Positions 34,581-51,209 of a stretch of 63,666 nt of DNA are shown piece by piece. Under the pieces are notes generated by a model, which did no database searches, had not been told where the DNA came from, and saw nothing but the letters and a program-made list of their open reading frames with translations. Origin of the DNA: Fulvivirga sp. (GTDB lineage Bacteria; Bacteroidota; Bacteroidia; Cytophagales; Cyclobacteriaceae); contig JANQLQ010000139.1 of the NCBI GenBank assembly GCA_028280565.1, forward strand, positions 1 to 63,666, in the 5' to 3' direction. Position numbers and translations under genes: made by a program. Numbering within the stretch: the stretch's first letter is position 1; each line of letters starts with the position of its first letter.

Positions 34581-34910
34581 GTTCTAGGATTATACCCAGT
34601 TCGCGGAACTGATCACGTCTTCCTCGGGGTATTCAAGATCATTCGCGGGCATTTTTTTCACTTCCGCAGGGACTTAATGAACTTCCTATCCAAATAATAT
34701 TCTGTCATCGGGTAAAAAAACTTCTTCTCGCAAAATAAAATTTTTTCCGCGGGTTTGATTACATTTTCCTCGGATTGTCATGACTCATCCTCGGGGTAAT
34801 AAGGTTTATCCTTGGGGCTTAGCGCTAATTTATCGGGTGATATTGCCCTGTCCGCGGGGCCTGGTGTGGCTTCCGCGGGCAGGGAGGTGGTGTTCGTAGT
34901 GCCGCGGAGG
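34581..34910. repeat. Degenerate 21-bp-period array downstream of the 232-aa gene
   Basis: Cores of the type C-G-C-G-G or C-T-C-G-G recur at 34602, 34623, 34644, 34665, 34686 (weak), 34707, 34728 (weak), 34748, 34769, 34790, 34811, 34832, 34853, 34874 and 34895 (weak). Every step is 21 bp except one of 20. Each unit has a TTC-CGCGG-G-like core of about 8-9 bp and about 12 variable bases. Read on the - strand it gives heptads of the type Pro-(Ala/Asp/Glu)-(Glu/Asp/Lys) but with several stop codons. It starts right after the stop of the - strand gene 34911-35609. Confidence 0.8.
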
Positions 34911-35609
34911 CTAGCGCTTGTACTGGCTGCCGTACGCCTTCACCCGGTCTTTATCCTTGCGGAATACATACCGGCCCGTGACACGTACTTCGTCCACCGC
35001 GGCTTTCAGGTGGGTGTAGGCGCGGTCGCGTATGAGCTTGGCCTCCGAGTCGTCGGCCCTTTCGCCGTTGGCGCGGGCCAGCAGGGTGGCCATCTCATTG
35101 GCCAGTTCGGCAGCCTGGGTAAGCCGACCCGCATCGAAGTGGATGGCGTTGAGCTCTGCGGCGCCGGCTGTGCCTAACGCCGCCAGGTCGCTTAGGTCCT
35201 GGATCATATCATGATGGCCGGAGCCGTCCGCTACCTCCCTCACACGGCCCAGCAGGTCGGGGCGGTTGCGAAAGGCAAACCGGAAGGTGGCCATCAGGTC
35301 GTCACGCTCCTCGTAGGCCCCGGGGGATCGTTCATTCCATTCTTTCTGGGCTTCTTCCTGCGTATAGCGGTTTTTTACCCACAGCGACTGTGCATGGCGC
35401 AGCGCCCCGGCTCTTACAGGCAGGTCCTCGCCATACACTTTCCAGTCGAGGCCGGAGGCAACAAGCGCGTTTTTGTCTTCCTCGGCGATCACGCCCAGGT
35501 TTTCCGCTTCCTGCAAATAGACGTCTACGGGCAGGTCAGGGATACGGATCTCATCGGAAGGCACAGCCTCCAGTATAGGTAGTTTGGTCTCGAAATTCTC
35601 TTTTGACAT
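34911..35609 (-). CDS. Uncharacterised 232-aa Bacteroidota protein
   Basis: A soluble, acidic, largely helical 232-residue protein with no signal peptide or membrane segment. Visible segments: LPVRAGALRHAQSLWVKNRYTQEEAQKEWNE at about 62-92 in the middle, HHDMIQDLSDLAALG at about 140-155, and a C-terminal YVFRKDKDRVKAYGSQYKR. No known catalytic motif is seen. It is richer in G and C than the AT-rich flanks. Downstream lies the 21-bp-period array, and repeats flank both sides, so it may be a mobile cassette. Function is unknown. Confidence 0.7.
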   Translation of the reverse strand: MSKENFETKLPILEAVPSDEIRIPDLPVDVYLQEAENLGVIAEEDKNALVASGLDWKVYGEDLPVRAGALRHAQSLWVKNRYTQEEAQKEWNERSPGAYEERDDLMATFRFAFRNRPDLLGRVREVADGSGHHDMIQDLSDLAALGTAGAAELNAIHFDAGRLTQAAELANEMATLLARANGERADDSEAKLIRDRAYTHLKAAVDEVRVTGRYVFRKDKDRVKAYGSQYKR

Positions 35610-35904
35610 AAATTTGGTTGGTTAAGTGAGAAAATTGGTTTCGGGTCACTTCCACGGCAGGGGACATATAAGAACGCCCGGGAACCGGTGATAACCTTAC
35701 GGCTACCGGGGGTCGGCCTCCTAGGGTAAGTAACTTAACGCCGGGAATATACGCGGGGAATTTGGTTTTGCAAAATTTTTAGGAAGAGAAGGATATATTT
35801 GGAATTATTGGTTCATAGGTTGAGTGATTTTAAGGAAAATATACCCAGGATTTCACAGTGAACCGCTCTCTATTTCAACCAAAACCACCACACTACAAAA
35901 GGAT
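35610..35904. other. Upstream region of the 232-aa gene
   Basis: No gene is supported. The region is AT-rich next to the - strand start, with a GC-rich block around 35680-35760 that contains CTACCGG and CCGGGAA-type short inverted repeats. A promoter for the 232-aa gene should lie here, but no clear element is seen. Confidence 0.4.
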
Positions 35905-36400
35905 CGTCATTCCGGCCAGCTATTGCCGCTGGCCTGCGCGCGAGCCGGAATCTGCGAAGTCGTTTAACGAAACTTTTGCTGGTGAAGGTAAATACACCTA
36001 AGATTATAAATGAATAAATCTCCATTTCAACCAAACCACCTCTCAAACGTCATTCCGGACCACGCGTTGGCTTTGCGAGTTGGTGGAGCCGGAATCTGTG
36101 AAGTCGTTTAACGAAACCTTTGCGGGTGAAGGTAAATACACCTAAGATCACAAATGAATAAATCTCCATTTAAACCAAAACTATCCCCCCAACGTCATTC
36201 CGGACCACGCGTTAGCTTTGCGAGTTGGTGGAGCCGGAATCTGTGAAGTCGTTTAACGAAACCTTTGCTGGTGAAGGTAAATACACCTAAGATCACAAAT
36301 GAATAAATCTCCATTTCAATCAAAACCACCTCTCAAACGTCATTCCGGACCACGTGTTGGCTTTGCGAGTTGGTGGAGCCGGAATCTATGAAGTCGTTTA
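35905..36400. repeat. Four tandem repeats of 143-145 bp leading into the XRE gene
   Basis: Units begin CGTCATTCCGG at 35905, 36048, 36193 and 36338 (steps 143, 145, 145). Each has a palindromic first third (ATTCCGG...CCGGAAT) then a tail with GTTTAACGAAAC and ATGAATAAATCTCCATTT. The last unit is cut short and runs into the XRE gene. Related palindromic units also occur at 32221, 33962 and 34372. Confidence 0.9.
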
Positions 36401-36693
36401 ACCAGGTTCTGCCAGTACAGGTCCCTTTATTCCAAGAAGAACATAAGAATTATTTATCGAAATTCGGTATAGTGAACACGAAAGGAGAAAAACATTTTCA
36501 AAAACTAGGGGCTAAGATCAAGCAATTGAGAGAAGAAAAAGGAATGGACCAAAAGTCTTTTGCTTTTGATGCCGGGATTGGAAGAACTCAATTGCATAGG
36601 ATTGAAAGTGGAAAAACGAATCCACGTTTACTCACTTTGATGAAAATTGCGGGTGGGTTGGAGGTTTCGGTTCCGGAGTTGTTGGCTTTTTGA
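36388..36693 (+). CDS. XRE-family helix-turn-helix regulator
   Basis: A roughly 101-residue protein with a C-terminal XRE helix-turn-helix at about 38-95 (LGAKIKQLREEKGMDQKSFAFDAGIGRTQLHRIESG). The ATG at 36388 lies inside the last tandem repeat, where the other copies have GTG. Its first codons are therefore repeat-derived. A GTG at 36472 would give a 74-residue protein holding the whole domain and may be the real start. It lies 234 bp before hsdR and probably controls the restriction operon, like known control proteins. Confidence 0.85.
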   Translation: MKSFNQVLPVQVPLFQEEHKNYLSKFGIVNTKGEKHFQKLGAKIKQLREEKGMDQKSFAFDAGIGRTQLHRIESGKTNPRLLTLMKIAGGLEVSVPELLAF

Positions 36694-36927
36694 CATCCGA
36701 ATGGGGAATAGGGGCAGAAGATGCAGTGTTTTACAGCATATTACCTGTGAATTAGTAGTAGGTTTCTTTTTTGTTATCTTAGATTCGAATTTTATCAAGG
36801 TAGAATTGATAAAAGAGACTGAAAACCCTGGAATTCGAGGAAAACAACAAACCCGGTCAGACTGAAAAAGAATTGCAGATATCCTCAATCCAGGTGCAAA
36901 AGATTTTAACGAATTAGCAACCGTCAA

Positions 36928-39900
36928 GTGAAATTCAACGAAGACTCCCGCGTAAAGATCCCCACAATACTTCACCTTATAAAGTTGGGATATGAGTACT
37001 TATCACTCAAAGGCGCCGTATGGGATGAAGAAACAAATATCTTCACAGCTATCTTTAGTGATAGCATCCGGCGAATTAATCCCGATCTCAACGACCATGA
37101 TATTGAAAGGCTTTATGCAGAGATTTCCCTCTGCTTGGAAAACGAAGACCTCGGAAAGGCTTTTTATGGTAAGCTGGTGGATCAGTCCGGTGTGCGTTTA
37201 CTCGATCTCGAAAACTTCGATAACAACACTTTTCATGTCGTTACGGAGTTAACTTATAAGAAAGACGATGACGAATTCCGGCCCGACATTATCTTGCTCA
37301 TTAACGGGATGCCACTGGTCTTCATCGAGGTGAAAAGGCCAAACAACCCTGACGGGATCATTGCTGAGCGTAAGCGGATCTTCATCCGTTTCCAAAATAG
37401 GAAATTCCGAAAGTTTATTAACCTGACACAGCTCATGGTCTTTTCCAACAATATGGAGTATGACGACGAGGACCCCGAACCGCTGCAAGGAGCTTACTAT
37501 GCCACTACTTCCTATAAGGAACCGGTGTTTAATTACTTTCGTGAAGAGGAAGAGCTGGACCTGGCCAATTTACTAGGGAAAGTTTCTGAGGAACAGGAAA
37601 ACTTCGTCCTGCAAGATACCAATTATGTTGGGATCAAAAATTCGCCAGAATTCGTCACCAATAAAGATCCCAATAGGCCCACCAACAGGATCTGTACTTC
37701 ACTTTTTAGGAAGGAACGGCTCAAATTCATTTTGCAGTATGCTTTTGCTTTTATGAAGGAGTTCCACGGACTGGAAAGGCATGTGATGCGGTATCCTCAG
37801 CTATTTGCCACCAAAGCTATTGCAGCAAAACTGGATCAGGGGGTGAGAAAAGGTATTATTTGGCACACCCAGGGGAGTGGTAAGACAGCCTTGGCTTATT
37901 ATAATGTGCGATACCTCATCGACTACTTCCAACAGCAATCCGTTATTCCCAAGTTTTACTTTATCGTGGATCGCTTAGACCTGCTGGTCCAGGCAGGCCG
38001 TGAATTCAAAGGCCGTGGACTGGTTGTTCACCAGGTCAATTCCAAAGAAGAATTTGCCCGGGATATTCGGTCTACCAGTGCTATACACAACACCTCCGGG
38101 GCGCCTGAAATTACGGTGGTCAATATCCAAAAGTTCCAGGAAGATGCCAATGTCGTGCAAAACTCGGATTACAATATCAATATTCAGCGGGTGTACTTCT
38201 TGGATGAAGTGCACCGTAGCTACAACCCCAAGGGAAGCTTCCTGTCCAACCTGAACGAATCCGATCCCCAGGCGATCAAGATCGGGCTTACGGGCACGCC
38301 CTTATTAGGCCAGAATTACAATTCCCGCTCATTGTTTGGCGGCTACATTCACAAATATTATTACAATGCCTCCATTATTGACGGCTACACATTGCGGCTG
38401 ATCCGTGAGGAGATCGAGACCAGCTATAAGATCAAAATGATCAAAGCGCTGGAGGAGATCGATATCCTGAAAGGCAATGGGGACCGCAAACTGGTCTACG
38501 CACATCATAAATTCGTAGAACCTATGCTGGATTACGTAGTATCGGATTTTGAGAAGAACAGGCTGACCTCAAATGATGCCAGCATAGGGGGTATGGTGGT
38601 GTGCGACTCCTCAGACCAGGCCAAAAACATGTACGAGATCTTTCAGCAAAAGTATGCCGATGAGGAAGCATTACCGATTGCTGCCGAACCGGAATTAAGC
38701 TACCAAGTACATCAACAAGATGAACGAAAGGTAACGACTGCTGCTCTCATTTTACATGATGTCGGCACAAAAGATGAACGCAAAGAACGGGTAGAAGATT
38801 TCAAAGATGGGAAGATCGACCTGCTGTTCGTTTACAATATGCTGCTCACTGGTTTTGATGCGAAACGACTCAAGAAACTCTACCTCGGGCGGGTGATCAA
38901 ATCGCACAACCTTCTACAGGCGTTGACGCGGGTCAACCGGCCGTACGGGAATTTTCGATATGGCTTCGTAGTAGATTTTGCGGACATCCAAAGTGAGTTT
39001 GATAAAACCAACAAGGCCTATTTTGAAGAGCTTCAGTCGGAGTTAGGTGATGAAATGGAGCACTACTCCAATCTTTTCAAAACACAGGAAGAGATAGAAC
39101 AGGAGATCGCCGAGATCAAAGAGGCATTATTTCATTTTGATACGATGAATGCCGAAAACTTTTCGGACCAAATCTCTCAAATCAAGGACCGCACCCAGGT
39201 GCTGGCCATTACGAAGGCGCTCAACAACGCCAAGAGCCTGTATAATCTCATTAGGCTATCAGGACACCATGAGTTGCTTGATAAGCTTGATTTCCGAAAG
39301 TTAACTACCCTGTCAAGGGAAGCCAATAACCACCTGGCACTACTCAATCAAAAACTGGCCCTTGAATCCGGTGCTGATACTTCCAATCTACTTAATGTGG
39401 CGCTGGAAGATGTCCTCTTCAAGTTCACCAAGATATCCGAAGAAGAGATGATACTGGCCGATCAGCTAAAGACGACCCTGAAGAGAACACGCGAGAAGCT
39501 TGGGGGCAACTTCGACCAGGCCGACCCGGAATTTATCTCCCTGAAAGAAGAGCTGGAGCGACTTTTTAAAAAGAAAAACCTTTCTGAAATTTCACAGGAG
39601 GAGATGACGCAAAATATCGAAGAGCTGGAGGTGGTCTATGACAAAGCTAGGGAGCTGGAGCGTGTGAACCAACTGCTTAAGGCGAGGTACGACAATGACG
39701 AGAAGTATGCGCGGCTGCACAAACGGCTGATGGAGAAAGATCCGCTTACGGACAGTGAAAGTAAGCTGTTTGAAGCCCTCTCCGGGTTGAAGAAAGAAGT
39801 GGATGGGCAACTCCTCAAGAACGCCAACCTGATGGAAAATGAGAGCTTCGTGCAGCGAATGACCATGCGGCTGGTCATTGACCAGTTCCAGAACAAAAAC

Positions 39901-39993
39901 CAAATACCACTGGACCCGGACAAGACCCATAGGATCAATACGATGGTGGTGAAAGAGTATTTGAACGAGTACCGTCATGGGCGAGTGGCGTAA
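36928..39993 (+). CDS. hsdR: Type I restriction enzyme R subunit (HsdR)
   Basis: A 1021-residue motor and nuclease subunit. The N-terminal PD-(D/E)xK nuclease shows Asp120 and FIEVK (Glu134, Lys136). The superfamily 2 helicase shows Walker A HTQGSGKT (about 313-320), DEVH at 426-429 and TGTPLL after it, then motif VI-like ALTRVNRPYG. A coiled-coil-rich C-terminus (from about 700) should bind the methylase complex. The start is GTG at 36928, with an in-frame stop just upstream. It is complete, with no frameshift seen. It cuts unmethylated DNA after ATP-driven translocation, together with HsdM and HsdS. Confidence 0.95.
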   Translation: MKFNEDSRVKIPTILHLIKLGYEYLSLKGAVWDEETNIFTAIFSDSIRRINPDLNDHDIERLYAEISLCLENEDLGKAFYGKLVDQSGVRLLDLENFDNNTFHVVTELTYKKDDDEFRPDIILLINGMPLVFIEVKRPNNPDGIIAERKRIFIRFQNRKFRKFINLTQLMVFSNNMEYDDEDPEPLQGAYYATTSYKEPVFNYFREEEELDLANLLGKVSEEQENFVLQDTNYVGIKNSPEFVTNKDPNRPTNRICTSLFRKERLKFILQYAFAFMKEFHGLERHVMRYPQLFATKAIAAKLDQGVRKGIIWHTQGSGKTALAYYNVRYLIDYFQQQSVIPKFYFIVDRLDLLVQAGREFKGRGLVVHQVNSKEEFARDIRSTSAIHNTSGAPEITVVNIQKFQEDANVVQNSDYNINIQRVYFLDEVHRSYNPKGSFLSNLNESDPQAIKIGLTGTPLLGQNYNSRSLFGGYIHKYYYNASIIDGYTLRLIREEIETSYKIKMIKALEEIDILKGNGDRKLVYAHHKFVEPMLDYVVSDFEKNRLTSNDASIGGMVVCDSSDQAKNMYEIFQQKYADEEALPIAAEPELSYQVHQQDERKVTTAALILHDVGTKDERKERVEDFKDGKIDLLFVYNMLLTGFDAKRLKKLYLGRVIKSHNLLQALTRVNRPYGNFRYGFVVDFADIQSEFDKTNKAYFEELQSELGDEMEHYSNLFKTQEEIEQEIAEIKEALFHFDTMNAENFSDQISQIKDRTQVLAITKALNNAKSLYNLIRLSGHHELLDKLDFRKLTTLSREANNHLALLNQKLALESGADTSNLLNVALEDVLFKFTKISEEEMILADQLKTTLKRTREKLGGNFDQADPEFISLKEELERLFKKKNLSEISQEEMTQNIEELEVVYDKARELERVNQLLKARYDNDEKYARLHKRLMEKDPLTDSESKLFEALSGLKKEVDGQLLKNANLMENESFVQRMTMRLVIDQFQNKNQIPLDPDKTHRINTMVVKEYLNEYRHGRVA

Positions 39994-40064
39994 ATTGTCA
40001 GTATTGGGATTGGTTGGATTAGGAGATTATTGGATTTTATATCGACTTGAACAAAAAACTAGGA

Positions 40065-40490
40065 ATGAAAGAAGAGATCCAGGATGACCTCACGTATAAG
40101 ATCATTGGCTGTGCCATGAAAGTGCATTCCTTCCTGGGGAATGGCTTCCAGGAAGTAATTTACCAGCGGGCTTTGGCCATCGAACTGGAAAAAGCGAAAT
40201 TAAGTTTTGAAAGAGAGCAGGAACAGACTATTTATTACGAGGGGATGGACATAGGCACCCGAAGAGCTGACTTTTTAGTTGAAAATGAAGTGTTGGTAGA
40301 GCTAAAGGCCGTTATAAAAATGGAAGACGTACACCTGGCGCAAGGGTTAAACTACCTGGTAGCATATCGGTTGGATAAAGGATTACTGATCAACTTTGGA
40401 GCCCAAAGTTTACAGGTAAAACGGCTCCGCCATCCTAAAAACCGAACCAACCCGGCAATCAAAAAACCTGGTAATGTAGAGGCAAAATGA
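40065..40490 (+). CDS. GxxExxY-family protein
   Basis: A roughly 141-residue protein (ATG at 40065; a TTG at 40047 is possible). The family name motif is seen as GNGFQEVIYQRAL, and the C-terminal part has VELKAV, HLAQGLNYLVAYRLDKGLLINFG. The fold is PD-(D/E)xK nuclease-like: ADFLVENEVLVELKAV supplies Asp and Glu-x-Lys-like residues. Its role is unknown; such genes are common in Bacteroidota and often stand near mobile or defence genes. It is inserted between hsdR and hsdM. Confidence 0.85.
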   Translation: MKEEIQDDLTYKIIGCAMKVHSFLGNGFQEVIYQRALAIELEKAKLSFEREQEQTIYYEGMDIGTRRADFLVENEVLVELKAVIKMEDVHLAQGLNYLVAYRLDKGLLINFGAQSLQVKRLRHPKNRTNPAIKKPGNVEAK

Positions 40491-40600
40491 AGATATTCAT
40501 CTTGCCCCAGGTCCAAATTATTTAGTAGCTTATGATACATAAAGGATCACATTCATCAATTTAGAAACTAAAAATATAGAGGCGAAGGCTAACTATGATC
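40489..40600 (+). pseudogene. Fragment of a second GxxExxY gene
   Basis: Translation from 40489 gives EDIHLAPGPNYLVAYDT, a stop, then RITFINLETKNIEAKA. This lines up with EDVHLAQGLNYLVAYRLDKGLLINFG...NVEAK of the intact gene, about 166 bp upstream. It is a decayed partial tandem duplication and carries an in-frame stop. Confidence 0.6.
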
Positions 40601-40661
40601 GAGTAAGCCAAGAATCCCAAAATCCAATAATCCTACAAATCCAAATACAGACAAAAAGAAA

Positions 40662-42287
40662 ATGACCAAAACACTAGAATTTGAACGGCAAACCAAGGCC
40701 ATGATCGACGGCCTGAAAAGCGTGTGTGCAAATTATGGGTTGGGAAACGACGGGAACGAATTTAAGATCATCACACAGGTGTTCCTGTACAAATTCCTTA
40801 ATGACAAGTTTGTATATGAAGTAAAAAGAATAGACCCGAAAATAGCGGGTGCCGAAAATTGGGAAGGGGCGCTTAAGGCATACCCGTCGAAACAGTACGA
40901 GATGCTGATGATGCAGCTTAGCGAAAGCACGGCCCGCATTAGCCCGGATCATTTCATCTCCTCGCTGTTTGAAAAGCAGAACCAGCCCAACTTTGCCGAG
41001 ATCTTTGACAATACCCTGCTGGACATAGCCCGGGAAAACAGCGATATCTTTTCCGTAGTGACTAACAGTGGTGAGAAGATCGTGCTATTTGAGAACATCA
41101 GTAAGTATGTGACGGACGATAGGGACGAGTTTTGCAAGGCCATTATCAACAAGCTCATTCACTTCAGCTTTGAGCATATTTTCGGCGAGAAGTTTGACTT
41201 CTACGCCACCATTTTTGAGTACCTCATCAAAGACTATAATACCAACAGTGGCGGTAAATATGCCGAGTACTTCACGCCACACGCCGTAGCCAAGATCATG
41301 GCGAGGTGCCTGGTGCAGGGGGAGCCGAAGAACGTTACCTGCTTTGACCCCAGCGCCGGGTCAGGCTCGCTACTGATGAACCTGGCCCACGAGATAGGGG
41401 AAGACCGCTGCACCATTTATTCGCAAGACATCTCCCAGAAGTCATCCAACTTGCTGCGGCTCAATCTTATCTTGAATAACCTGGTACACTCCATCCCCAA
41501 CATCGTAAAGGGCAATACCATCCTTGATCCCTACCACCGCGATGCCAGTGAGGCGCTGCAGCAGTTTGACTACATCGTGTCTAATCCACCCTTTAAGCTG
41601 GACTTTTCTGACTTTAGCGCCGACCTGGACACCAAAGCCAACAACGAGCGGTTTTTTGCAGGTATCCCTAAGGTACCGGCCAAAAAGAAAGAGTCCATGG
41701 CCATTTACCTGATGTTTATCCAGCACATCATGCACGTGCTGAAAAACACTGGCAAGGCCGCTGTTGTAGTGCCTACCGGATTCATTACCGCTCAAAGCGG
41801 GATCGACAAAAGGATCCGTCAAAAGCTGGTGGAAGAAAAAATGCTGGCCGGGGTGGTGAGCATGCCCAGTAATATCTTTGCTTCTACTGGTACGAATGTG
41901 TCCATCCTGTTTATTGATAAGGAAAATAAGGAGCATGTGGTGCTGTTGGATGCCTCTGGTCTAGGTACGAAAGAAAAGGTAGATGACAAAAACCAAAAGA
42001 CTGTACTATCTCGTGAAGAAGAAAACCGGATCATTGACACCTTCAATAATAAAGAAGCTGTGGATGACTTCTCAGTAGTGGTGAGTTATGAGGAAATAGA
42101 AGCGAAAAATTACTCGCTGAGTGCGGGGCAGTATTTTGAGGTGAAGATTGAGTATGTGGATATTACAGAGGACGAATTCAAATCTCAATTGCTAATACAT
42201 GAAGAAAATCTCAACAAATTATTTGAACGATCAAAGGAGTTAGAAGGTGAGATAAAACTTGGCATTGGAAGCCTCCGCTATGAATAA
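40662..42287 (+). CDS. hsdM: Type I DNA adenine methyltransferase (HsdM)
   Basis: A 541-residue N6-adenine methyltransferase. An HsdM N-terminal helical domain (about 5-150) is followed by the SAM-binding motif FDPSAGSGSLL (about 228) and the catalytic NPPF (308-311). It protects host DNA and forms the M2S core with HsdS. The last 8 bp overlap the hsdS start (ATGAATAA), so translation is coupled. Length and motifs are intact. Confidence 0.97.
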   Translation: MTKTLEFERQTKAMIDGLKSVCANYGLGNDGNEFKIITQVFLYKFLNDKFVYEVKRIDPKIAGAENWEGALKAYPSKQYEMLMMQLSESTARISPDHFISSLFEKQNQPNFAEIFDNTLLDIARENSDIFSVVTNSGEKIVLFENISKYVTDDRDEFCKAIINKLIHFSFEHIFGEKFDFYATIFEYLIKDYNTNSGGKYAEYFTPHAVAKIMARCLVQGEPKNVTCFDPSAGSGSLLMNLAHEIGEDRCTIYSQDISQKSSNLLRLNLILNNLVHSIPNIVKGNTILDPYHRDASEALQQFDYIVSNPPFKLDFSDFSADLDTKANNERFFAGIPKVPAKKKESMAIYLMFIQHIMHVLKNTGKAAVVVPTGFITAQSGIDKRIRQKLVEEKMLAGVVSMPSNIFASTGTNVSILFIDKENKEHVVLLDASGLGTKEKVDDKNQKTVLSREEENRIIDTFNNKEAVDDFSVVVSYEEIEAKNYSLSAGQYFEVKIEYVDITEDEFKSQLLIHEENLNKLFERSKELEGEIKLGIGSLRYE

Positions 42288-43590
42288 GCTGAAAACATAT
42301 AAATTCGGTGACCTGTATAAAATGAGTTCAGGCATTTCTTCAACACCTGATCAGGCCGGTCATGGAACACCATTTCTGTCTTTTGGTACTGTTTTCAATA
42401 ATTATTTTCTTCCAACATATCTGCCCGACCTAATGAATATTTCTGAAAAGGAGATGGAAATATACTCCATTAAAGAAGGTGATATTTTCTTAACTAGAAC
42501 AAGCGAAACATTGGATGAGTTGGGCATGAGTAGTGTTGCCATCCAGGATTATCCCGGGGCTTCTTACAGCGGTTTTTTAAAACGTCTTAGGCCTACTCAG
42601 AACCATATCACTTATCCAAAATTTATGGCTTTCTATCTCAGGAGTAAACTCTTTAGAAAGACCATGAATAATAATGCGATCATGACCTTGCGGGCAAGTC
42701 TTAATGAGCAAATCTTTTCTTATTTGGATTTGCTTTTGCCGGGATATGATGAGCAAAAAAAGATTGGTGATCTTCTATTTCAAATGAATCAAAAAATCGA
42801 ACTAAACAACAAAATCAATGCAGAGCTAGAGGCCATGGCCAAGCTCATTTATGACTATTGGTTTGTGCAGTTTGATTTCCCGGATGAAAACAGCCGGCCT
42901 TACAAATCCTCTGGCGGTAAAATGGTTTACAATGAGGAGTTGAAAAGGGAGATTCCTGAGGGGTGGGAGGTGAATGCTGTCAAAGAAGAATTGGGTGTGC
43001 AATATGGATTTCCGTTTAGTACCGATGCCTTCAATGAGGAAGGTAATGGGCTGCCAGTTGTTAGAATTAGGGATATTCTAACCAATACTATCTCTCTCTA
43101 TTCCACCGAGGAGGTTGAGGAAAAATATAAACTGTTGCGGGGTGATTTATTGATTGGTATGGATGGTAACTTCCATATGAATTTTTGGGATAAAAATGAT
43201 TGCTATTTGAATCAAAGATGTGTGCGAATCAGAAAGAAAAATGATTCAAGAGTGTCACTGTTTCAGACTTTATTTAGTTGTCAACCTTACATAATAGCTA
43301 GAGAAAAAAATGTTTCACGTACTACTGTGGGTCATTTAAGTGCGCGTGATATAAACGAATTAAAGGTACTTGTTCCAAATGATCAAAATTTGATTGAAAG
43401 GACTAAATTGTTTGATGACGCACTTAATAAAATAGTGGCCAAAAGAAATGAAAACCAAAAACTCGCCGAACTCCGCGACTGGCTCTTGCCCATGCTTATG
43501 AATGGCCAGGTGACGGTGGGAGAGGTGAAGGAATATGTGCAGGATCAGGGGGCAAGCATGGCTGCTGAGAAAGGGGGTGTGTATGACTAA
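42280..43590 (+). CDS. hsdS: Type I specificity subunit (HsdS)
   Basis: About 436 residues with two target-recognition domains, each followed by a helical spacer. The first ends near NQKIELNNKINAELEAMAKLIYDYWFVQFDFP and the second near RNENQKLAELRDWLLPMLMNGQV, both typical HsdS sequences. The two recognition domains set a bipartite DNA target, which cannot be read from sequence. The ATG at 42280 overlaps hsdM by 8 bp, which excludes the frame extension to 42259. The gene ends in an 8-bp overlap (ATGACTAA) with the KAP NTPase gene. Confidence 0.95.
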   Translation: MNKLKTYKFGDLYKMSSGISSTPDQAGHGTPFLSFGTVFNNYFLPTYLPDLMNISEKEMEIYSIKEGDIFLTRTSETLDELGMSSVAIQDYPGASYSGFLKRLRPTQNHITYPKFMAFYLRSKLFRKTMNNNAIMTLRASLNEQIFSYLDLLLPGYDEQKKIGDLLFQMNQKIELNNKINAELEAMAKLIYDYWFVQFDFPDENSRPYKSSGGKMVYNEELKREIPEGWEVNAVKEELGVQYGFPFSTDAFNEEGNGLPVVRIRDILTNTISLYSTEEVEEKYKLLRGDLLIGMDGNFHMNFWDKNDCYLNQRCVRIRKKNDSRVSLFQTLFSCQPYIIAREKNVSRTTVGHLSARDINELKVLVPNDQNLIERTKLFDDALNKIVAKRNENQKLAELRDWLLPMLMNGQVTVGEVKEYVQDQGASMAAEKGGVYD

Positions 43591-45727
43591 AAAGAAACTG
43601 GGGCCAGATTCTTACCCAAAATCGGAATCCCCAGGAAAAAGCGATGACTCCCCGGAAGGACACCAAACCATACCGTATGACGAGGTTTTCCTTACGGAAG
43701 AGGTTACGCTGGAAGAAAATTATGAAACAGGAGAGCCTAGGGACGTAACCGATGCAGATGATCTCACTGGTGATTTTTATGAAATAGAGCAGTTCAATAA
43801 CAATGTAGGCATTTACCTCGCAGGGCACACCTATGGGCATGATGATCAATTGCCCAGGTTTATGGAAGAAGGTATCTGGGAAACCGGTTTTAATAGAAAA
43901 TATGCGGCTAAGATTAATGAAGTAAAAGCAGGAGCCCTATTACTTTCCAAAACCAAAAGCATACGAGGGAGTATACTGATTATTGATGGAATAGGCATAG
44001 TAGAGTCTAACGATAATAACGGTACGTCCCTTAAAGTACGATGGATAGAGGCACAGGAAGTTAGTACTGACAAGGAGATCAGGTTTCCAAAAATAGCTGG
44101 CACGTACCCCGGCACTTTTCATAAGCTGAAATCCAGTCATATTGTGCAGGTGGTCAGTACTATTGGGCTGGAGTTATTTCAACGCCTTATCCGCGATTTT
44201 GATGCTTCAATGCAATATGCCGGCCTCCGAATACGGGCAGACTCACCGGAAGTTTATCTTAACGCTGAAATCATAGCACGTGAATTTGCCAGCATTATCC
44301 ACAGAAGTAAGTCTGCCACGGATACCACAAAACCTTCCCAGGAAGATCGGTTTTATGGAATATTCGGGCAATGGGGCAGGGGAAAAACCCGGTTTTGGAA
44401 TCTTGTAAGAGAAAGTTTAAAGTCCAATGAGGGACAGTACAGGTTCATTGATTTTCATGCCTGGAAATACCAGGATACACCAGCGGTGTGGGCCTACCTG
44501 TATGAAAAGTTTGCTGATGAATATTATTTCAAAGCGCGAAATATTTTCTTCTATCCATTCCAGGTCATTATCAATGGCCTGCAGTCTTTTTGGTTATCCG
44601 TTTACCGGAGTCCGGGACATGTTTATGCCTTCCTGGGCAGTGTGATTCTTTTAGTGTTGGTTTTGACTATTGGTAAAACGAATATCATTCAGAACGGAAA
44701 AGTTGAAAGTTGGCCATCAGTTTTGATGTTGATAGGATCCGTTGGTTTGAGTATTTACACTTTCCTGCAGACATTTTCCAAGCCGATAGCCTCCAGCGCT
44801 AAGCAGTTTATCAAACTAGCCTCACGTAAAAGCTTCAAGGTTCATTTAGGAATACAGCATGAAGCCCAGGAAGAGTTAAAGATCCTACTCAAGGCATGGT
44901 ACAGGCTGTATTCAAAAAATAAAAAAAAGACATTGGTGCTGTTTATCGATGATATAGACCGGTGTGATGAGAAGAAGGTAGTGCAGATCGTCGATTCGAT
45001 CAGGGTCATGCTGAATGAGCCGGAAATCCAGCGCAGGCTGATTGTTCTGGCGGCCATTGATGAAAGAATCTTGTGCCAGGCGATCCGTAAAAAGTATGAA
45101 GGATTTGTAGACAATAAACATCAGACGCTGGATGTGGGAAGGCTTACCTCGGAGTACCTGGACAAGCTCTTTATTGCGGGTGTGAAACTAAGCGAGTTGA
45201 ATAACCAGAACAAGCAAGAGATACTGAAAGGATATGCCAAAGATATGATCGAGTGTATAAATAGGAAGAAGTTAATTTCGCAAACAGAAAAGCAAGAAAA
45301 AAGTCATGAAGATGAAGGCGATAAAGAAACTGAAATTGGAACAGCGCTATGGGTTAGACAGACTATAACAAAAGTCTTAACAAGGTCCGACACCGTTGGT
45401 GATGAGAAAGTCGAATTGTCCATTACAGAAGGTGATATGCTGGCTGTTGAAGTTCAGGGACTAAAATATGCCACGCCGAGATCGATCAGGGGTTTCCTGG
45501 TAAAATACAGGCTGGCCCGAAATCTGGCTGCTATTTTACTGGGTACCAAACCGGACCAGAGAACCTTTAAGGACATAGCTCAACGCATTGTCAGTGTCAT
45601 GAACTTCGAGCCACACCATGATCCGGCCGAACCGGCTGTGCTGGATGATTCCGATAGGTTAAAACTGGAAGCCATTATTGACATGGTAGATTATTATCAT
45701 GGAGATAACTCAGCACATACATCGTGA
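43583..45727 (+). CDS. KAP-family P-loop NTPase with McrB-like N-terminal domain
   Basis: About 714 residues from the ATG at 43583, which overlaps the hsdS stop by 8 bp; a longer frame from 43535 is less likely. Residues about 1-60 are acidic. Residues about 80-180 (YLAGHTYGHDDQLPRFMEEG, IWETGFNRKYAAKI, IDGIGIVES, GTSLKVRW) resemble the domain that precedes the AAA module in many McrB-like restriction proteins. The KAP NTPase follows: Walker A GQWGRGKT (262-269), two transmembrane helices (about 348-366 and 377-395) inserted in the domain, and Walker B LVLFIDDIDRCDE (about 451-463). KAP NTPases include the phage-exclusion protein PifA. The coupling suggests this is part of the restriction system. 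Confidence 0.85.
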   Translation: MTKKKLGPDSYPKSESPGKSDDSPEGHQTIPYDEVFLTEEVTLEENYETGEPRDVTDADDLTGDFYEIEQFNNNVGIYLAGHTYGHDDQLPRFMEEGIWETGFNRKYAAKINEVKAGALLLSKTKSIRGSILIIDGIGIVESNDNNGTSLKVRWIEAQEVSTDKEIRFPKIAGTYPGTFHKLKSSHIVQVVSTIGLELFQRLIRDFDASMQYAGLRIRADSPEVYLNAEIIAREFASIIHRSKSATDTTKPSQEDRFYGIFGQWGRGKTRFWNLVRESLKSNEGQYRFIDFHAWKYQDTPAVWAYLYEKFADEYYFKARNIFFYPFQVIINGLQSFWLSVYRSPGHVYAFLGSVILLVLVLTIGKTNIIQNGKVESWPSVLMLIGSVGLSIYTFLQTFSKPIASSAKQFIKLASRKSFKVHLGIQHEAQEELKILLKAWYRLYSKNKKKTLVLFIDDIDRCDEKKVVQIVDSIRVMLNEPEIQRRLIVLAAIDERILCQAIRKKYEGFVDNKHQTLDVGRLTSEYLDKLFIAGVKLSELNNQNKQEILKGYAKDMIECINRKKLISQTEKQEKSHEDEGDKETEIGTALWVRQTITKVLTRSDTVGDEKVELSITEGDMLAVEVQGLKYATPRSIRGFLVKYRLARNLAAILLGTKPDQRTFKDIAQRIVSVMNFEPHHDPAEPAVLDDSDRLKLEAIIDMVDYYHGDNSAHTS

Positions 45728-46031
45728 TAGCCCTTGTAGGGTGTTAAGCTAAGTAAAATTACCACTAAGCGTTACCCGATATGGAAATTTCCGATGCTGA
45801 TCAAGGCAGTTATTAGATATCCGCAGGATAAATGCTGGCGTTTGCACTTTTTTAGTCTAATGGTTCTCATTATAAACGAGAACCAGTTTAGGTCAAGACG
45901 AGTAAGAGTGGCTTTGTGATCATTTTGTTGGCTTGGCCCCAACAAAATGATACCACCCCACTAGCTTTGCCTTAATAGTTTGGAGGAATAATAGGGAAAT
46001 CAAACACCAACTTTGCTCATTATCACAACTC
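45728..46031. repeat. Gene-free stretch with two hairpins, one shared with 47050 and 48554
   Basis: No gene is supported. GGTTCTC at 45862-45868 pairs with GAGAACC at 45878-45884; the same design occurs at 47050 and 48554 with different but still paired stem bases. A second perfect 13-bp hairpin spans 45919-45951 (ATCATTTTGTTGG...CCAACAAAATGAT), about 190 bp after the KAP gene, and could end its transcript. Confidence 0.7.
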
Positions 46032-46322
46032 TCAACTTCCCTCTTTATCCCCATCCATACTATTAAAATAAGGCCTCAACGAATCAAGCTGGTCAAACAA
46101 CTCCCCTAATCGAGCATACATATAAATAAGGTCACTCACTTTTTCTGGGGTCATTTTACAGGCCGTTCCCGGGTTAGGACGCACCGCTAAAACTAATAAT
46201 TCCCATAGCTGTTTTTTCAGCGCAGGGGCATCGATCCAAGACAGTTGGTTATCCACCAGGTCTTGCAAGAATTTAAGCTTATCTATCGGCAATAATTCCG
46301 TGTTGTTTTTATGCCGTGTCAT
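46032..46322 (-). CDS. Uncharacterised 96-aa protein
   Basis: A small, mainly helical, soluble protein, not recognised. Segments LPIDKLKFLQDLVDNQLSW and PEKVSDLIYMYARLGELFDQLDSL look like helices that pack in a bundle. The start ATG lies inside the end of the upstream - strand frame (14-bp overlap), so it was coupled to that now broken gene. It may be a partner protein whose system has decayed. Confidence 0.5.
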   Translation of the reverse strand: MTRHKNNTELLPIDKLKFLQDLVDNQLSWIDAPALKKQLWELLVLAVRPNPGTACKMTPEKVSDLIYMYARLGELFDQLDSLRPYFNSMDGDKEGS

Positions 46323-46620
46323 TCTTCATAAGATTAAGGACCAAATTTTTTAGAAAGTGATTCATCATTTGTATGATCACCGTTAGCCCCGGTTCTTTAC
46401 CTTGTATGGCTAACGTAGCGTTGTTGGCTTCCATCAATAGCTGGGTGAGGTCACGGATATTGGCCGGCATGTTGTTGCTGTCTTCTGACTGGAAAAACAG
46501 TCGATGGCAATGCGCCTAACATGGCGCTCGAAGTGGGAGCGATTAAAGGAGGTGAATTTCGGGTTCTGTTCATAGAATACGGCGTTATTCTTGATTAATA
46601 ATATATTGTTATTGTATGCT
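46309..46620 (-). pseudogene. Frameshifted small gene upstream of the 96-aa gene
   Basis: On the - strand an upstream frame reads NNAVFYEQNPKFTSFNRSHF and ERHVRRIAIDC; a second frame then continues FFQSEDSNNMPANIRDL and ends LNLMKNDTA, stopping at 46309-46311. Restoring one T in the T5 run (plus-strand A5 at 46493-46497) joins them. No usable start codon is seen upstream before an in-frame stop. The intact ATG at 46470 gives a 53-residue remnant. Confidence 0.5.
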
Positions 46621-46700
46621 AATATATATAATAACTATGCTATTAGCAAATTAGAGATATAGTTATTTTATGTCTAGGCATATGCTGGCTATATTTAGGT

Positions 46701-46913
46701 ATGCCTGAACACAAGGAGAAGTACAATCGGATAAAGTTGGTGATGGTTGAAAAGGAGGTGGGAGTGGAAGAATTATCCCGGGCCATCGGTAAGCATCCTC
46801 AATCCGTCATTGCCTATCGCAATAATACTATGCAACCCACTTTAAAAACCTTATTCGCTATAGCCAAAGCGCTGCAAGTCTCACCTTGTGAGCTACTGGC
46901 TATTCCAAGCTAA
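46701..46913 (+). CDS. Small XRE-family HTH protein
   Basis: A 70-residue single-domain XRE/Cro-type regulator. The helix-turn-helix is VEKEVGVEELSRAIGKHPQSVIAYRNN and the C-terminus ALQVSPCELLAIPS is typical of such minimal repressors. It is divergent from the decayed - strand gene pair, sharing a very AT-rich 80-bp gap, and may have repressed that pair. It could also regulate neighbouring defence genes. Confidence 0.85.
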   Translation: MPEHKEKYNRIKLVMVEKEVGVEELSRAIGKHPQSVIAYRNNTMQPTLKTLFAIAKALQVSPCELLAIPS

Positions 46914-47322
46914 ACCTAATTAGGAACTCGGGAGCGCTGGCTTTCCCCTTCAGGGGTCAGGGGTAGCGCTGGCTTTTCCCAAGCTTATCCAAGCCGTCAT
47001 CAGGACCCGCATTGCAAATGCTGGCGTCAGTGCCCAACTAGGGTCAATAGGCCCTCGTTACAAACAAGGGCCAGTTTTAGATTAGTTTTTGGTTAGTTAT
47101 AACCAATTTAAGGTACAAACTCAGGGTAAGAGACATTCTTCGCGTGTTGGGTTTCCCCTTTCGCCGTAGGCATTCCTTCGGAAAGGGGTATAGGGGTAGC
47201 GTAGGCTTTTCGCACCAGGATCTCGTGCGGAGAGCCCTTATGCTTAGACGGATCGACTTTTACTGCTTTAAGCGAAATACGGGGCTTAATTTCGAAGTCA
47301 CAGACTTCTTAGTGAGCGATTA
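46914..47322. repeat. Left direct-repeat block beside the nucleotidyltransferase-HEPN gene
   Basis: 46936-47080 matches 48448-48580 and 47128-47365 matches 48690-48905, in the same orientation. It includes the GGCCCT...AGGGCC hairpin (47050-47072), GCATTGCAAATGC, and the GAAGTC-ACA-GACTTC hairpin near 47296. No gene is seen. Confidence 0.8.
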
Positions 47323-47430
47323 TTAATTATCGGTAGGCTCAAGACACAGTCTTAAGCCAGTTAGAGGGTAGCCAGCGATAAAAGCTCCAATCAAAACAAC
47401 TCCTCCAATTATTAGCAGTATTCGTTTCAC
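47323..47430 (-). pseudogene. Truncated small membrane-protein gene remnant
   Basis: A 35-codon frame starts with GTG at 47430 and reads KRILLIIGGVVLIGAFIAGY, one transmembrane or signal segment, then runs into the shared repeat and stops at 47323-47325. It looks like the 5' end of a membrane-protein gene cut by repeat insertion or recombination, as at 33454-33525. It could also be expressed as a short membrane peptide. Confidence 0.45.
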
Positions 47431-47468
47431 TTCACTATTTATCCAAATGATGTTATTTGCTTTCAGCC

Positions 47469-48347
47469 TTACACTCCCGGACTCATCCCAATCCCCTCAA
47501 TCTTCTCCCCACAAAGCCTTTCCGTCACCTCCTTCAGCTGCTCCACCTTCTCCGCCAGGTAATCCAGCTCCTCTTTGGAAATATTGTATTCCTCCATATT
47601 ATACCGTGCATCCACATACGCCCGGCGTAGCAACTCAAACCGCCTTTTTTCCTCATCCGTATCCTGCGGAAATACCGCAAAGCGTGGATCACAATTCTTC
47701 ACCCGTAGATTCAGCCGGGCCAAGTCATGCTCCTTGGGCCGGTAGTCCGTGTATACAAGTAAAATCGTGGTATAGTAGCGTTCGGTGGCCTGGTGGAGTT
47801 CAAAAGCTGCTTTGTGCAGGCTGTTTCTCCCAAGGGCATGATTGAAGTCAATCAAAAACTCATTCGCACTCCTAAACCACTGGTCAAAATACTCCTGCGC
47901 CTTCTGCTGAGCCTCTTCTGCCGTCAGCTTTTTAGGCTCTTGCAGCCGTACATTACCCGTGTCATGCAGTACGATACCTTCTTTTTTAATGTCTTGAAAA
48001 AAGTAGTTGCCACGCTGTAAGGCTTGGTTCAGGTGCTTGCCGGAGTGGAAGATAAGGCTGATGGGCGTTTTCACCAGGCCGGTGTCCCGTAGCGTTTCGT
48101 TTACCTTGGTTTCTATTTTGAAGTTGGCCTGCAAGTCGTCGTGGCGGGTCACTACTAACAGGTCGTAGTCGCTTTTGTATTCGTACAGGATGCCGTTTTC
48201 CACGTAGGAGTCTTCCACGTACTTGCCGCGGGCGTAGCTGCCAAAGAGGATCACCATCTCTACGTCTTTGCTATTGCCCAGCAGTTGGGCCAGGTGCTGT
48301 AATTCTTCCTGTTTGGTAAGGGGGAGTTGTTGTAAAGCTTCGTTCAC
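47469..48347 (-). CDS. Nucleotidyltransferase (MNT)-HEPN fusion protein
   Basis: A 292-residue protein. The N-terminal nucleotidyltransferase domain has FGSYARGKYVEDSYV then KSDYDLLVV (the G-S-x-A-R...D-x-D signature), at about residues 35-75. The C-terminal HEPN domain is at about 145-280 (AAFELHQATERYYTTILLVYT, YRPKEHDLARL). In two-gene HEPN/MNT toxin-antitoxin systems the MNT AMPylates and silences the HEPN RNase; here both are in one chain. The canonical HEPN R-x4-6-H motif is not clear (RPKEH has a shorter gap), so RNase activity is uncertain. Direct repeats flank the gene. Confidence 0.85.
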   Translation of the reverse strand: MNEALQQLPLTKQEELQHLAQLLGNSKDVEMVILFGSYARGKYVEDSYVENGILYEYKSDYDLLVVTRHDDLQANFKIETKVNETLRDTGLVKTPISLIFHSGKHLNQALQRGNYFFQDIKKEGIVLHDTGNVRLQEPKKLTAEEAQQKAQEYFDQWFRSANEFLIDFNHALGRNSLHKAAFELHQATERYYTTILLVYTDYRPKEHDLARLNLRVKNCDPRFAVFPQDTDEEKRRFELLRRAYVDARYNMEEYNISKEELDYLAEKVEQLKEVTERLCGEKIEGIGMSPGV

Positions 48348-49172
48348 AGTGTAAAATAGGGGATTATTTTTGTAGGACTAAATATAAGGTAATAATTCGT
48401 TTTATGCTTTTTTTTAAACAGTAGTGGCAATCTAATGTGCGGTAGAGTTCCCCTTTAGGGGCTAGGGGTAGCGCTGGCTTTTCCCAGCTTATCCAAGCCG
48501 TCATCAGGACCCGCATTGCAAATGCTGGCGTCAGTGCCCAGCTATGGACAATAGGCCCTCGTTACAAACAAGGGCCAGTTTTTGATTCAATAATGGGTGT
48601 CGTTGGGCGCATGGTGTTTCATTCCGGATTGAGCGGACGCTCTTGGTCATCGGTAGGTCTTAGGAACGCTTCGCTAAACCTAAGACCAGTAGGGACATTC
48701 TTCGCGCGTTGGCTTTCCCCTTTAGGGGCTAGGGGTAGCGGAGGCTTTTCACACCGGTACCTCGTGCGAAGAACCCTTATGCTTAGACGGATCGACTTTT
48801 ACGGCTTTAAGCGAAATACGGGGGCTTAATTTCGAAGTCACAGACTTCTTAGTGTGCGATTATTAATTATCGATAGGCTCAAGACACAGTCTTAAGCCAG
48901 TTATAGGAAATGCAAGGAGTTGCAAACATTAATGGCAAATGCTCGCATCGAAAGTCACCATTGGAAAAGTGCCTTGAATATAAAAATTGGTGATGAGTAC
49001 TCCTTTTTAACCATTTTTAAACACTATCCTGTCTACTTACACCGTTAACGCCAGGTGTTTATTGCACCTTTAGCGTCTTAATTTACCAAGAGCAGGCAAG
49101 TAATAGTTCTGCAATACATTTTTAACCAGTTCAACTATCAATCTCATACATTCACAAATCTCCCTGGTAGAT
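48348..49172. repeat. Right direct-repeat block and GH2 upstream region
   Basis: 48448-48580 and 48690-48905 repeat the left block at 46936-47365; 48590-48690 is a part copy of the 32.4-34.3 kb hairpin repeat (GGTCTTAGG...CCTAAGACC). The last 250 bp (48910-49172) are AT-rich and should hold the GH2 promoter, but no clear element is picked out. No gene is seen. Confidence 0.75.
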
Positions 49173-51209
49173 ATGTTAGCAAAGACCTTAACCATAGTGC
49201 TATGCATTGTTACTTCCGCTCTTTCAGCACAAACGAGACTCAGCCTTATGGAAGACTGGCAATTTGTGCGAGGCTATCAATACAATATGCAAAAACAACC
49301 CCCATGGGAACAGGTAGACCTGCCCCATACCTGGAATGCCCAAGACGTGGCCGATGGCAAGCTGGACTACTACAGGGGGTTGGGGGTTTATAAAAAGAAG
49401 ATAGCCATTGAAGCAGGGCACCTGGAAAAGCGCTTCTTTTTGCACTTTGAGGGCAGCACACTGGTCACCGATGTGTACGTTAATGGAAGGCATGCAGGGC
49501 ACCACAAAGGAGGCTATACTGGCTTTACCTTGGAGATCACCGATTTTGTGCAGGTAGGAGAGGATAATGAGCTTATGGTCATGGTCAATAATGCTTTCCA
49601 TTCCGAAGTGATGCCGCTTGTCGGGGATTTCAATGTTTACGGTGGGCTTCACCGGCCCGTTTACCTGCTTTTACGGGAAAAGGCGTGTATCGATGTGTTG
49701 GATCACGGCTCTCCCGGGGTCTTTATCACACAGGAAAACGTTAGCCCAGGGAAAGCCGATGTTTCCGTGAGTGGAAAGATCTCCAACGGCGCAGGACAAG
49801 AAAAAACATTGGGAGTATCCGTAGAGATCAAAGATCACCAGGGGTTGGTAGTGGCCGTAGCGAAAGCCAATATTGACGTGGGCCCAAAGGAGACCAAAGG
49901 CTGGAGTGTCGATCTATCCTTAGAAGAACCGCGTTTGTGGCAGGGGCGAAAAGATCCGTACCTGTACCAGTTGGTCACTACCGTCACCGAGGAAGAGAAA
50001 ATGATCGACCGGCTTGAGCAACCCCTGGGGCTGCGGTATTTTTCCCTGGATTCGGCGAAGGGTTTTTTCCTAAACGGGGAGTACACCGATCTTCGGGGAG
50101 TATGTTACCATGAAGCTAAAGCCGGGAAGGGCAGTGCACTTACGCCAAGTGACTATGATCAAGACTTTGAGATTATGCTGGAGATGGGTGTCAACGCCAT
50201 ACGGACGGCCCACTATCCGCATTCGGAGTACTTTTACCGGGTGTGCGATTCACTCGGCATCCTGGTATACACCGAGATCCCGATGGTCGGTCCCGGGGGC
50301 TACCTGGGCCGGGGTTTTATGAACTCAGCAGGCTTTAAAGCCAACGGGAAAGAACAGCTCAAAGCGCTGATCCGCCAAAATTATAACCACCCTTCCATCT
50401 TTTTTTGGGGGCTGTACAACGAGGTAAAGATCAACGGGGACGATCCTTATGAATATATCCAGGAGCTAAATGAAATTGCCAAAAAAGAAGACCCCTACCG
50501 GTTGACCATGGCGGCTACTTTTCAGGATAACCACAACAATGACATCACCGATGCCATTGGGTGGAACCGCTATTTTGGCTGGTATGGAGGTGACCCCTCT
50601 TACATAGGACAATGGGCAGATGAGATGCACGCCCGTTTCCCGGGGAGGCCCATTTCCGTGAGCGAATATGGCGCTGGGGCCAGCATCCATCATCATTCCG
50701 ATTCGCTGGTAGCCCCGAAGCCGGCAGGTCGCTGGCACCCGGAAGAATGGCAAGCCCACTACCATGAGCAAAACTGGCAGGAGCTGGGAAAAAGGCCTTT
50801 CATTTGGGGGAAATTCATCTGGCTTATGTTTGATTTCGGGGCAGTACATCGCGCCGAAGGTGATCGGAAAGGAGTGAATGACAAAGGCTTGGTCACGGCA
50901 GATCGTTTAGTGAAAAAGGACGCCTACTATTTTTACAAAGCTCATTGGCACCCAAGGCCAATGTTGTATTTGGCCTCTAAAAGGTATACTGAACGCACCC
51001 GGGATAAAACAACGATCAAAGTTTACACGAACCTGGGAAAAGTGGACTTTTACCTTAGAGGTAAACGTGTAGGCTCGGCAAAGCCGGTAAATGGTATTGC
51101 CATATCCCCGGTGGTCACCCTTGTGCCGGGCGAAAACAAAATTATAGTCAAAGGCAAAAGCAAAGGCATTACACTGGAAGACCAGTGCAGTTGGACATTG
51201 ACGCCCTGA
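49173..51209 (+). CDS. GH2 glycoside hydrolase (beta-galactosidase/beta-glucuronidase type)
   Basis: A 678-residue exported enzyme (signal peptide ends near ALSAQ). It has the GH2 sugar-binding jelly-roll domain (LPHTWNAQD, KRFFLHFEGS), an immunoglobulin-like domain (about 185-285), and a barrel beginning LRGVCYHEAKAGKGSA. The acid/base Glu is in FWGLYNEVKI (about 415) and the nucleophile Glu in ISVSEYGAG (about 496). It lies alone between the defence island and the fucose locus on the opposite strand, so which polysaccharide locus it serves is open. Ulvan loci often encode GH2, so it may once have belonged to region 1. Confidence 0.92.
   Translation: MLAKTLTIVLCIVTSALSAQTRLSLMEDWQFVRGYQYNMQKQPPWEQVDLPHTWNAQDVADGKLDYYRGLGVYKKKIAIEAGHLEKRFFLHFEGSTLVTDVYVNGRHAGHHKGGYTGFTLEITDFVQVGEDNELMVMVNNAFHSEVMPLVGDFNVYGGLHRPVYLLLREKACIDVLDHGSPGVFITQENVSPGKADVSVSGKISNGAGQEKTLGVSVEIKDHQGLVVAVAKANIDVGPKETKGWSVDLSLEEPRLWQGRKDPYLYQLVTTVTEEEKMIDRLEQPLGLRYFSLDSAKGFFLNGEYTDLRGVCYHEAKAGKGSALTPSDYDQDFEIMLEMGVNAIRTAHYPHSEYFYRVCDSLGILVYTEIPMVGPGGYLGRGFMNSAGFKANGKEQLKALIRQNYNHPSIFFWGLYNEVKINGDDPYEYIQELNEIAKKEDPYRLTMAATFQDNHNNDITDAIGWNRYFGWYGGDPSYIGQWADEMHARFPGRPISVSEYGAGASIHHHSDSLVAPKPAGRWHPEEWQAHYHEQNWQELGKRPFIWGKFIWLMFDFGAVHRAEGDRKGVNDKGLVTADRLVKKDAYYFYKAHWHPRPMLYLASKRYTERTRDKTTIKVYTNLGKVDFYLRGKRVGSAKPVNGIAISPVVTLVPGENKIIVKGKSKGITLEDQCSWTLTP

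What the first reader, a model, noticed from the sequence alone, without database searches (positions are those of the whole stretch)
42280..45727. Type I restriction operon that continues by translation coupling into a membrane-anchored KAP NTPase with a McrB-like N-terminal domain
hsdM, hsdS and the KAP gene are joined by 8-bp stop/start overlaps (ATGAATAA and ATGACTAA), so the NTPase is built as part of the operon. The KAP protein has Walker A GQWGRGKT and Walker B FIDDIDR, two transmembrane helices inserted in the NTPase, and an N-terminal segment (RFMEEGIWETGF, GIGIVES, GTSLKVRW) that looks like the domain leading many McrB-like proteins. KAP NTPases include PifA, a phage exclusion protein. 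Inference: a membrane-located abortive or sensing arm attached to type I restriction, for example one reading modified DNA or HsdS-bound DNA.
Basis: partly seen in the sequence, partly recalled or inferred. Interest (0 to 1): 0.8.

Follow-up and report, generated by a model that had tools for sequence, protein, structure and literature searches.

The report
Modified-DNA reader fused to KAP NTPase
The last gene of a type I restriction operon makes a membrane-type NTPase carrying the kind of domain that McrB restriction enzymes use to read chemically marked DNA, so the operon may pair cutting of unmarked phage DNA with an alarm for marked phage DNA.

Summary
hsdM, hsdS and a 714-aa KAP NTPase gene overlap by 8 bp each. 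Walker A and B are intact, with two hydrophobic segments between them. Residues 77-205 belong to a family, without a Pfam model, found otherwise mainly in McrB proteins beside mcrC. Its predicted fold is EVE/YTH (PUA-like), VcaM4I and MJECL36 on top. The protein is an EVE-KAP fusion: McrB's reader on another NTPase. The fusion recurs. The same reader family lies in front of KAP in a same-genus genome, two same-order genomes and plasmid pSD15, where the gene lies between hsdM-like and hsdS genes. A second KAP of the window's own genome carries another EVE-type reader and follows two GHKL ATPases and DruA. A related SF2-helicase-KAP sits in a McrBC/type I cluster. Best model: HsdRMS cuts unmodified invaders, while EVE-KAP senses modified DNA and acts at the membrane, in McrBC's place. 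Ligand and membrane action are inferred, not shown. KAP NTPases, EVE readers and type I-McrBC pairing are known; the EVE-KAP combination was not found in the papers searched.

The parts
36370..36693 (+). HTH (Cro/C1-type) protein upstream of hsdR, possible control protein
   Evidence: Pfam HTH_3 1.1e-14; PADLOC Control_protein 1.8e-11
36928..39993 (+). hsdR, type I restriction subunit, 1021 aa, with a nuclease motif (FRPD...FIEVK), GSGKT and DEVH
   Evidence: HSDR_N 1.5e-22, SWI2_SNF2 1.4e-36; TIGR00348 254.9 bits, under its cut-off of 284.55; motifs
40047..40490 (+). GxxExxY protein (PDDEXK_3), role unknown
   Evidence: PF13366 6.4e-37; TIGR04256 over cut-off
40662..42287 (+). hsdM, N6-adenine methyltransferase, NPPF at residue 308
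   Evidence: N6_Mtase 3.2e-66; PADLOC MTase_I 1.2e-267
42280..43590 (+). hsdS, specificity subunit, 436 aa, two Methylase_S stretches; 8-bp overlap with hsdM
43583..45727 (+). EVE-KAP: KAP NTPase with McrB-type reader domain, 714 aa; 8-bp overlap with hsdS
   Evidence: PF07693 6.5e-23
43811..44197 (+). reader domain, residues 77-205, McrB-associated family, EVE/YTH-like predicted fold
44366..44389 (+). Walker A GQWGRGKT
44615..44671 (+). hydrophobic segment 1, residues 345-363
44720..44776 (+). hydrophobic segment 2, residues 380-398
44942..44962 (+). Walker B FIDDIDR
45919..45951 (.). perfect 13-bp inverted repeat, 7-nt loop, about 190 bp after the KAP stop; possible end of the transcript (not tested)

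Best explanation
EVE-KAP is a modification sensor with a membrane NTPase effector, built as the last gene of a type I restriction operon. HsdRMS methylates the host and cuts DNA lacking its adenine methylation (known for the family). A phage that escapes by modifying its bases is met by EVE-KAP. The EVE/YTH-like domain flips and binds a modified base (inferred from fold and relatives). The KAP NTPase, probably as a ring, then changes state at the membrane and stops the infection or the cell (inferred from Tmn, QatA and, from recall, PifA). It fills the slot that McrBC fills in other type I loci, with McrC's nuclease replaced by a membrane action. Shown here: gene order, overlaps, intact motifs, reader homology, predicted fold, recurrence of the fusion, recurrence beside type I genes. 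Inferred: ligand, membrane insertion, oligomer, outcome, cooperation with HsdRMS.
Confidence: 0.5

Rival explanations
1. EVE-KAP is an independent single-gene defence system (Tmn-like) that travels in the operon for shared expression; its reader binds modified or unmodified nucleic acid, perhaps RNA, with no functional link to HsdRMS.
For: Most relatives lack type I genes: no HsdR, M or S homologue at E 1e-5 in L014-L018, L060, L061, L021, L088, L089, L100 (some are short contigs). N-terminal modules vary within the KAP subfamily: SF2 helicase, TIR, EVE-type, unnamed. YTH relatives read RNA (titles).
Confidence: 0.25
2. Guard model: the reader recognises the N6-methyladenine made by the operon's own HsdM, or its loss, and KAP fires when phage proteins inhibit or degrade the type I system.
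For: HsdM is an N6-adenine methylase family member; YTH domains read m6A (structure titles); the YTH-type reader of T. gammatolerans McrB is reported to bind m6A in DNA (PMC7641849 passage).
Against: Bell et al. predict that the host mark is one EVE does not recognise.
Confidence: 0.13
3. EVE-KAP is an accessory subunit of the type I enzyme that tethers it to the membrane or tunes restriction.
For: Operon position and overlaps.
Against: The fusion and the KAP subfamily exist without type I genes in the DNA held; type I enzymes elsewhere need only HsdR, M and S (established knowledge).
Confidence: 0.07
4. The N-terminal domain is a decayed reader kept only as a linker.
For: Shortened loop and changed residues against McrB relatives.
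Against: W, G, F and K positions invariant in the alignments, the window row included, are kept, and the fusion recurs in other genomes.
Confidence: 0.05

Closest known systems
Tmn (KAP-family NTPase, anti-phage)
   Same: KAP NTPase with two transmembrane domains that inhibits phages (PMC11846954, passages)
   Different: No EVE-type reader named in the passages read; here the protein is the last gene of a type I operon
EVE-McrB / McrBC (type IV restriction), incl. pR997 McrB
   Same: Same reader family; same kind of position next to type I genes
   Different: The motor is KAP, not the McrB AAA_5 GTPase; no McrC beside it (McrC queries also gave no window match)
QatA (KAP NTPase of qatABCD) and PifA
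   Same: KAP NTPase; QatA binds DNA (PMC13279940, passages); PADLOC matches QatA 2.2e-15, PifA 4.7e-8, the latter over the Walker A region only
   Different: NCBIfam QatA score 55.3 against cut-off 600; none of the 8 operon and flanking proteins scanned showed a QatB, C or D model (lists for HsdS and HsdM are capped at 25)
VcaM4I (EVE-HNH endonuclease)
Type I restriction loci with EVE, ASCH or PIN-GNAT-EVE partners (Bell et al. 2020)
   Same: A modified-base reader accompanies HsdRMS (PMC7641849, passages)
   Different: The word KAP does not occur in that paper

Membership tests
KAP P-loop NTPase | Pfam PF07693 over gathering score | tested here: met
   81.8 bits against 20
KAP P-loop NTPase | Walker A and B with hydrophobic segments inserted between them | tested here: met
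   9 of 10 subfamily members have at least one such segment there, 5 of 10 two, L060 none (hydropathy above 1.6)
EVE domain (Pfam PF01878) | Score over Pfam gathering threshold | tested here: not met
   1 of 14 domain members matched, at E 0.11; the window row did not match it
EVE/YTH (PUA-like) fold | Predicted fold matches solved EVE/YTH domains | tested here: met
EVE/YTH (PUA-like) fold | Binds a flipped modified base in a hydrophobic pocket | not testable with these tools
   no ligand assay; pocket residues could not be superposed
McrB-associated reader domain family | Sequence homology to a domain of McrB proteins adjacent to mcrC | tested here: met
McrB | AAA_5/McrB GTPase domain | tested here: not met
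   only KAP_NTPase over cut-off in the protein
McrB | McrC gene next to it | tested here: not met
   none of 9 operon and flanking ORFs matched PF10117; three McrC queries gave no window match at E 1e-5
Type I restriction-modification | HsdR, HsdM and HsdS present and uninterrupted | tested here: met
QatA | NCBIfam NF041923 cut-off | tested here: not met
   55.3 bits against 600
Tmn | Sequence membership in the Tmn family | tested here: inconclusive
   no Tmn-named model appeared among PADLOC matches; whether the library holds one was not checked

The most novel reading that the evidence does not exclude
EVE-KAP is a further type of modification-dependent defence: McrB-type readers have been placed more than once on KAP NTPases, giving a nuclease-free counterpart of type IV restriction that kills or arrests at the membrane, and it joins type I operons as a second layer against phages with modified DNA.
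Probability: 0.4. Interest if true: 0.75.

Novelty: new variant of a known kind. Interest (0 to 1): 0.62.

Why it matters
The defence mechanism of Tmn, the best match in kind, is called unexplored in the paper read. A KAP with a reader whose ligand class is predicted by fold makes the sensing step directly testable, and would show that modified phage DNA can trigger a membrane response instead of cutting.

Tried and rejected
The KAP profile matched no PDB chain up to E 1. Viral contigs gave no confirmed relative of the KAP profile or of the window domain as a single query; the wider profile found 13 loci. Phage records gave no match to the G387 McrB reader. A combined alignment of reader and KAP rows was misaligned and not used (A4). 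The KAP-core tree did not resolve whether the two EVE-bearing cores of this genome are sisters (support 28/25). Rfam: no match in 34000-50000. Paper searches (listings, then passages of some) showed no EVE-KAP fusion. The KAP hit of PMC11090510 is the word Kaposi in a reference; its preprint was seen as a listing only. PMC10853773 mentions a KAP NTPase in operons with Orc/Cdc6 proteins (passage). PMC10855626 only lists a KAP gene in an expression table. The library is open-access only; the 2004 KAP family paper and the T. gammatolerans McrB paper were not held. L019 was dropped from subfamily counts because its KAP is split over two ORFs.

Full report
What is there. The window holds a complete type I restriction operon: hsdR 36928-39993, a GxxExxY/PDDEXK_3 gene 40047-40490, hsdM 40662-42287 and hsdS 42280-43590, followed by a 714-codon KAP NTPase gene 43583-45727. 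hsdM/hsdS and hsdS/KAP overlap by 8 bases, ATGAATAA and ATGACTAA. Motifs expected of active enzymes are present: FRPD...FIEVK, GSGKT and DEVH in HsdR, NPPF in HsdM, GQWGRGKT and FIDDIDR in KAP (which residues count as catalytic is established family knowledge). Two hydrophobic segments, residues 345-363 and 380-398, lie between Walker A and B. A 13-bp perfect inverted repeat follows at 45919-45951.

The N-terminal domain. Pfam, PADLOC and NCBIfam give no match with its best stretch in residues 1-250; the domain alone gives a sub-threshold LpxD match at 0.075. A search of 395 genomes of the phylum with the whole protein (8 of 395 matched) found in G387 a protein matching residues 86-189. It is a 708-aa protein with AAA_5, followed by a gene with McrBC PF10117 at 2e-58, so it is McrB next to McrC; the pairwise match is 37% over 107 residues. 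The same domain lies in AAA ATPases annotated next to mcrC in Paracoccus, Proteus pR997 and Rhizobium plasmids. A profile (A1) found it in 7 of 395 genomes at E 0.001 or better: the window's KAP; McrB proteins with McrC in G387, G232 and G312 (in G312 the domain starts some 235 residues in); two short ORFs of 124 and 128 aa in G388 and G258; and one weak match at 7.3e-4 in G300. In 13 of 13 viral-contig loci a McrC homologue follows the ORF with the domain. In most of these the domain is N-terminal; in L039, L043, L046 and L047, as in Rhizobium L034, it begins about 140-260 residues into the ORF as called.

The KAP part. A genome-contig scan found 7 relatives of the KAP region; 6 are single ORFs and L019 is split and was dropped. 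With the window, the own-genome paralogue on contig 281 and two more from family searches the subfamily has 10 full members here. It is rare: 5 of 395 genomes at E 1e-15, 2 of 131 and 2 of 127 at 1e-40, each count including the genome it started from. Their N-termini differ: SF2 helicase in L013, L015 and L060, TIR in L016, EVE-type in the window and contig 281, a winged-helix match under its cut-off in L017, none named by Pfam over cut-off in L014, L018 and L061; L018 matches PADLOC PtuA at 6.1e-15. 9 of 10 have at least one hydrophobic segment between the Walker motifs, L060 none. So the KAP NTPase is a common engine that takes different front modules.

Recurrence of EVE-KAP. A search of 68 relatives with the whole protein found two other genomes besides the own. 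These KAPs are of a more distant lineage. The contig-281 KAP carries a different domain that aligns with the stretch of a Sinorhizobium McrB which Pfam calls EVE (1.5e-8, over cut-off), and that McrB is followed by McrC; Pfam does not call the contig-281 domain itself. Its gene follows two GHKL ATPases and a DruA homologue on the same strand. Six EVE-KAP proteins were thus found. None of the 14 other same-genus genomes searched has a match to the window's own KAP lineage; one, G660, has the other type.

Recurrence beside type I genes. Two cases besides the window. L013: a YobI-like ATPase, a McrB-like AAA_5 protein, McrC, SF2-KAP, hsdS, hsdM, Fic, hsdS and hsdR, these all on one strand with further ORFs between. 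L098: the EVE-KAP ORF lies between an HsdM-like ORF and HsdS; hsdM and hsdS are interrupted and the KAP ORF ends early, so this copy looks degraded. A tblastn with HsdR, M and S from four loci found no homologue at E 1e-5 in L014, L015, L016, L017, L018, L060, L061, L021, L088, L089 or L100. That makes 2 of 10 subfamily KAPs, and 2 of 6 EVE-KAPs, in type I neighbourhoods, the window counted in both; three of the other EVE-KAPs are on contigs of 7.8 to 11.2 kb. McrB with the same reader lies directly after hsdS-BstXI-hsdR in pR997 and in an hsdM-hsdS locus in L031.

How it most likely works. Bell et al. 2020 describe EVE-McrB in nearly 300 genera and EVE-type domains beside type I systems, and the word KAP does not occur there (PMC7641849: passages and section 9). 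Bell et al. 2024 state that the E. coli K-12 type McrBC branch is frequently linked to type I RM (PMC11090510, passages). What KAP does after sensing is inferred from Tmn, a KAP NTPase with two transmembrane domains, phage-inhibiting activity and unexplored mechanism (PMC11846954, passages), and from QatA, which binds DNA and forms hepta- or octamers but is not strictly needed for qat defence (PMC13279940, passages). EVE of VcaM4I flips 5mC or 5hmC (PMC7897488, abstract and passages).

Verdict. The system is a new variant of a known kind: KAP defence NTPases, EVE readers and type I partners are each known, and the EVE-KAP combination was not found in the papers searched (open-access library only).

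Noticed in passing
G000 contig 281, L021:6749-14174: Second EVE-KAP of the same genome behind two GHKL ATPases (MzaB-like) and a DruA1 homologue (PADLOC 3.3e-180): a Druantia-like gene set with a KAP end gene.
   Followed up: partly
L013:546-21206: Marinilabiliaceae cluster combining YobI-like ATPase, McrBC, SF2 helicase-KAP, two hsdS, hsdM, Fic and hsdR in one direction.
   Followed up: partly
L088:109-3630 (-), residues about 318-420: The G660 EVE-KAP has a further stretch (FWWINAGEKW...GDLLIGF) between reader and KAP that looks like another PUA-type domain, and an extra N-terminal region of about 150 aa; both judged by eye.
   Followed up: no
window 40047-40490: GxxExxY (PDDEXK_3) gene sits between hsdR and hsdM; its role in the operon is unknown.
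   Followed up: no
window 47469-48347 (-): Single ORF joining a nucleotidyltransferase domain and a HEPN domain, from recall normally a two-gene MNT-HEPN toxin-antitoxin pair.
   Followed up: no
L018:8221-10701: KAP protein whose residues 106-314 match PADLOC PtuA (Septu) at 6.1e-15, another possible front-module swap.
   Followed up: no
L099:3690-8941: Rhizobium plasmid KAP NTPase gene followed with a 4-bp overlap by a SIR2-family gene: a possible KAP-SIR2 pair.
   Followed up: no
   Followed up: partly
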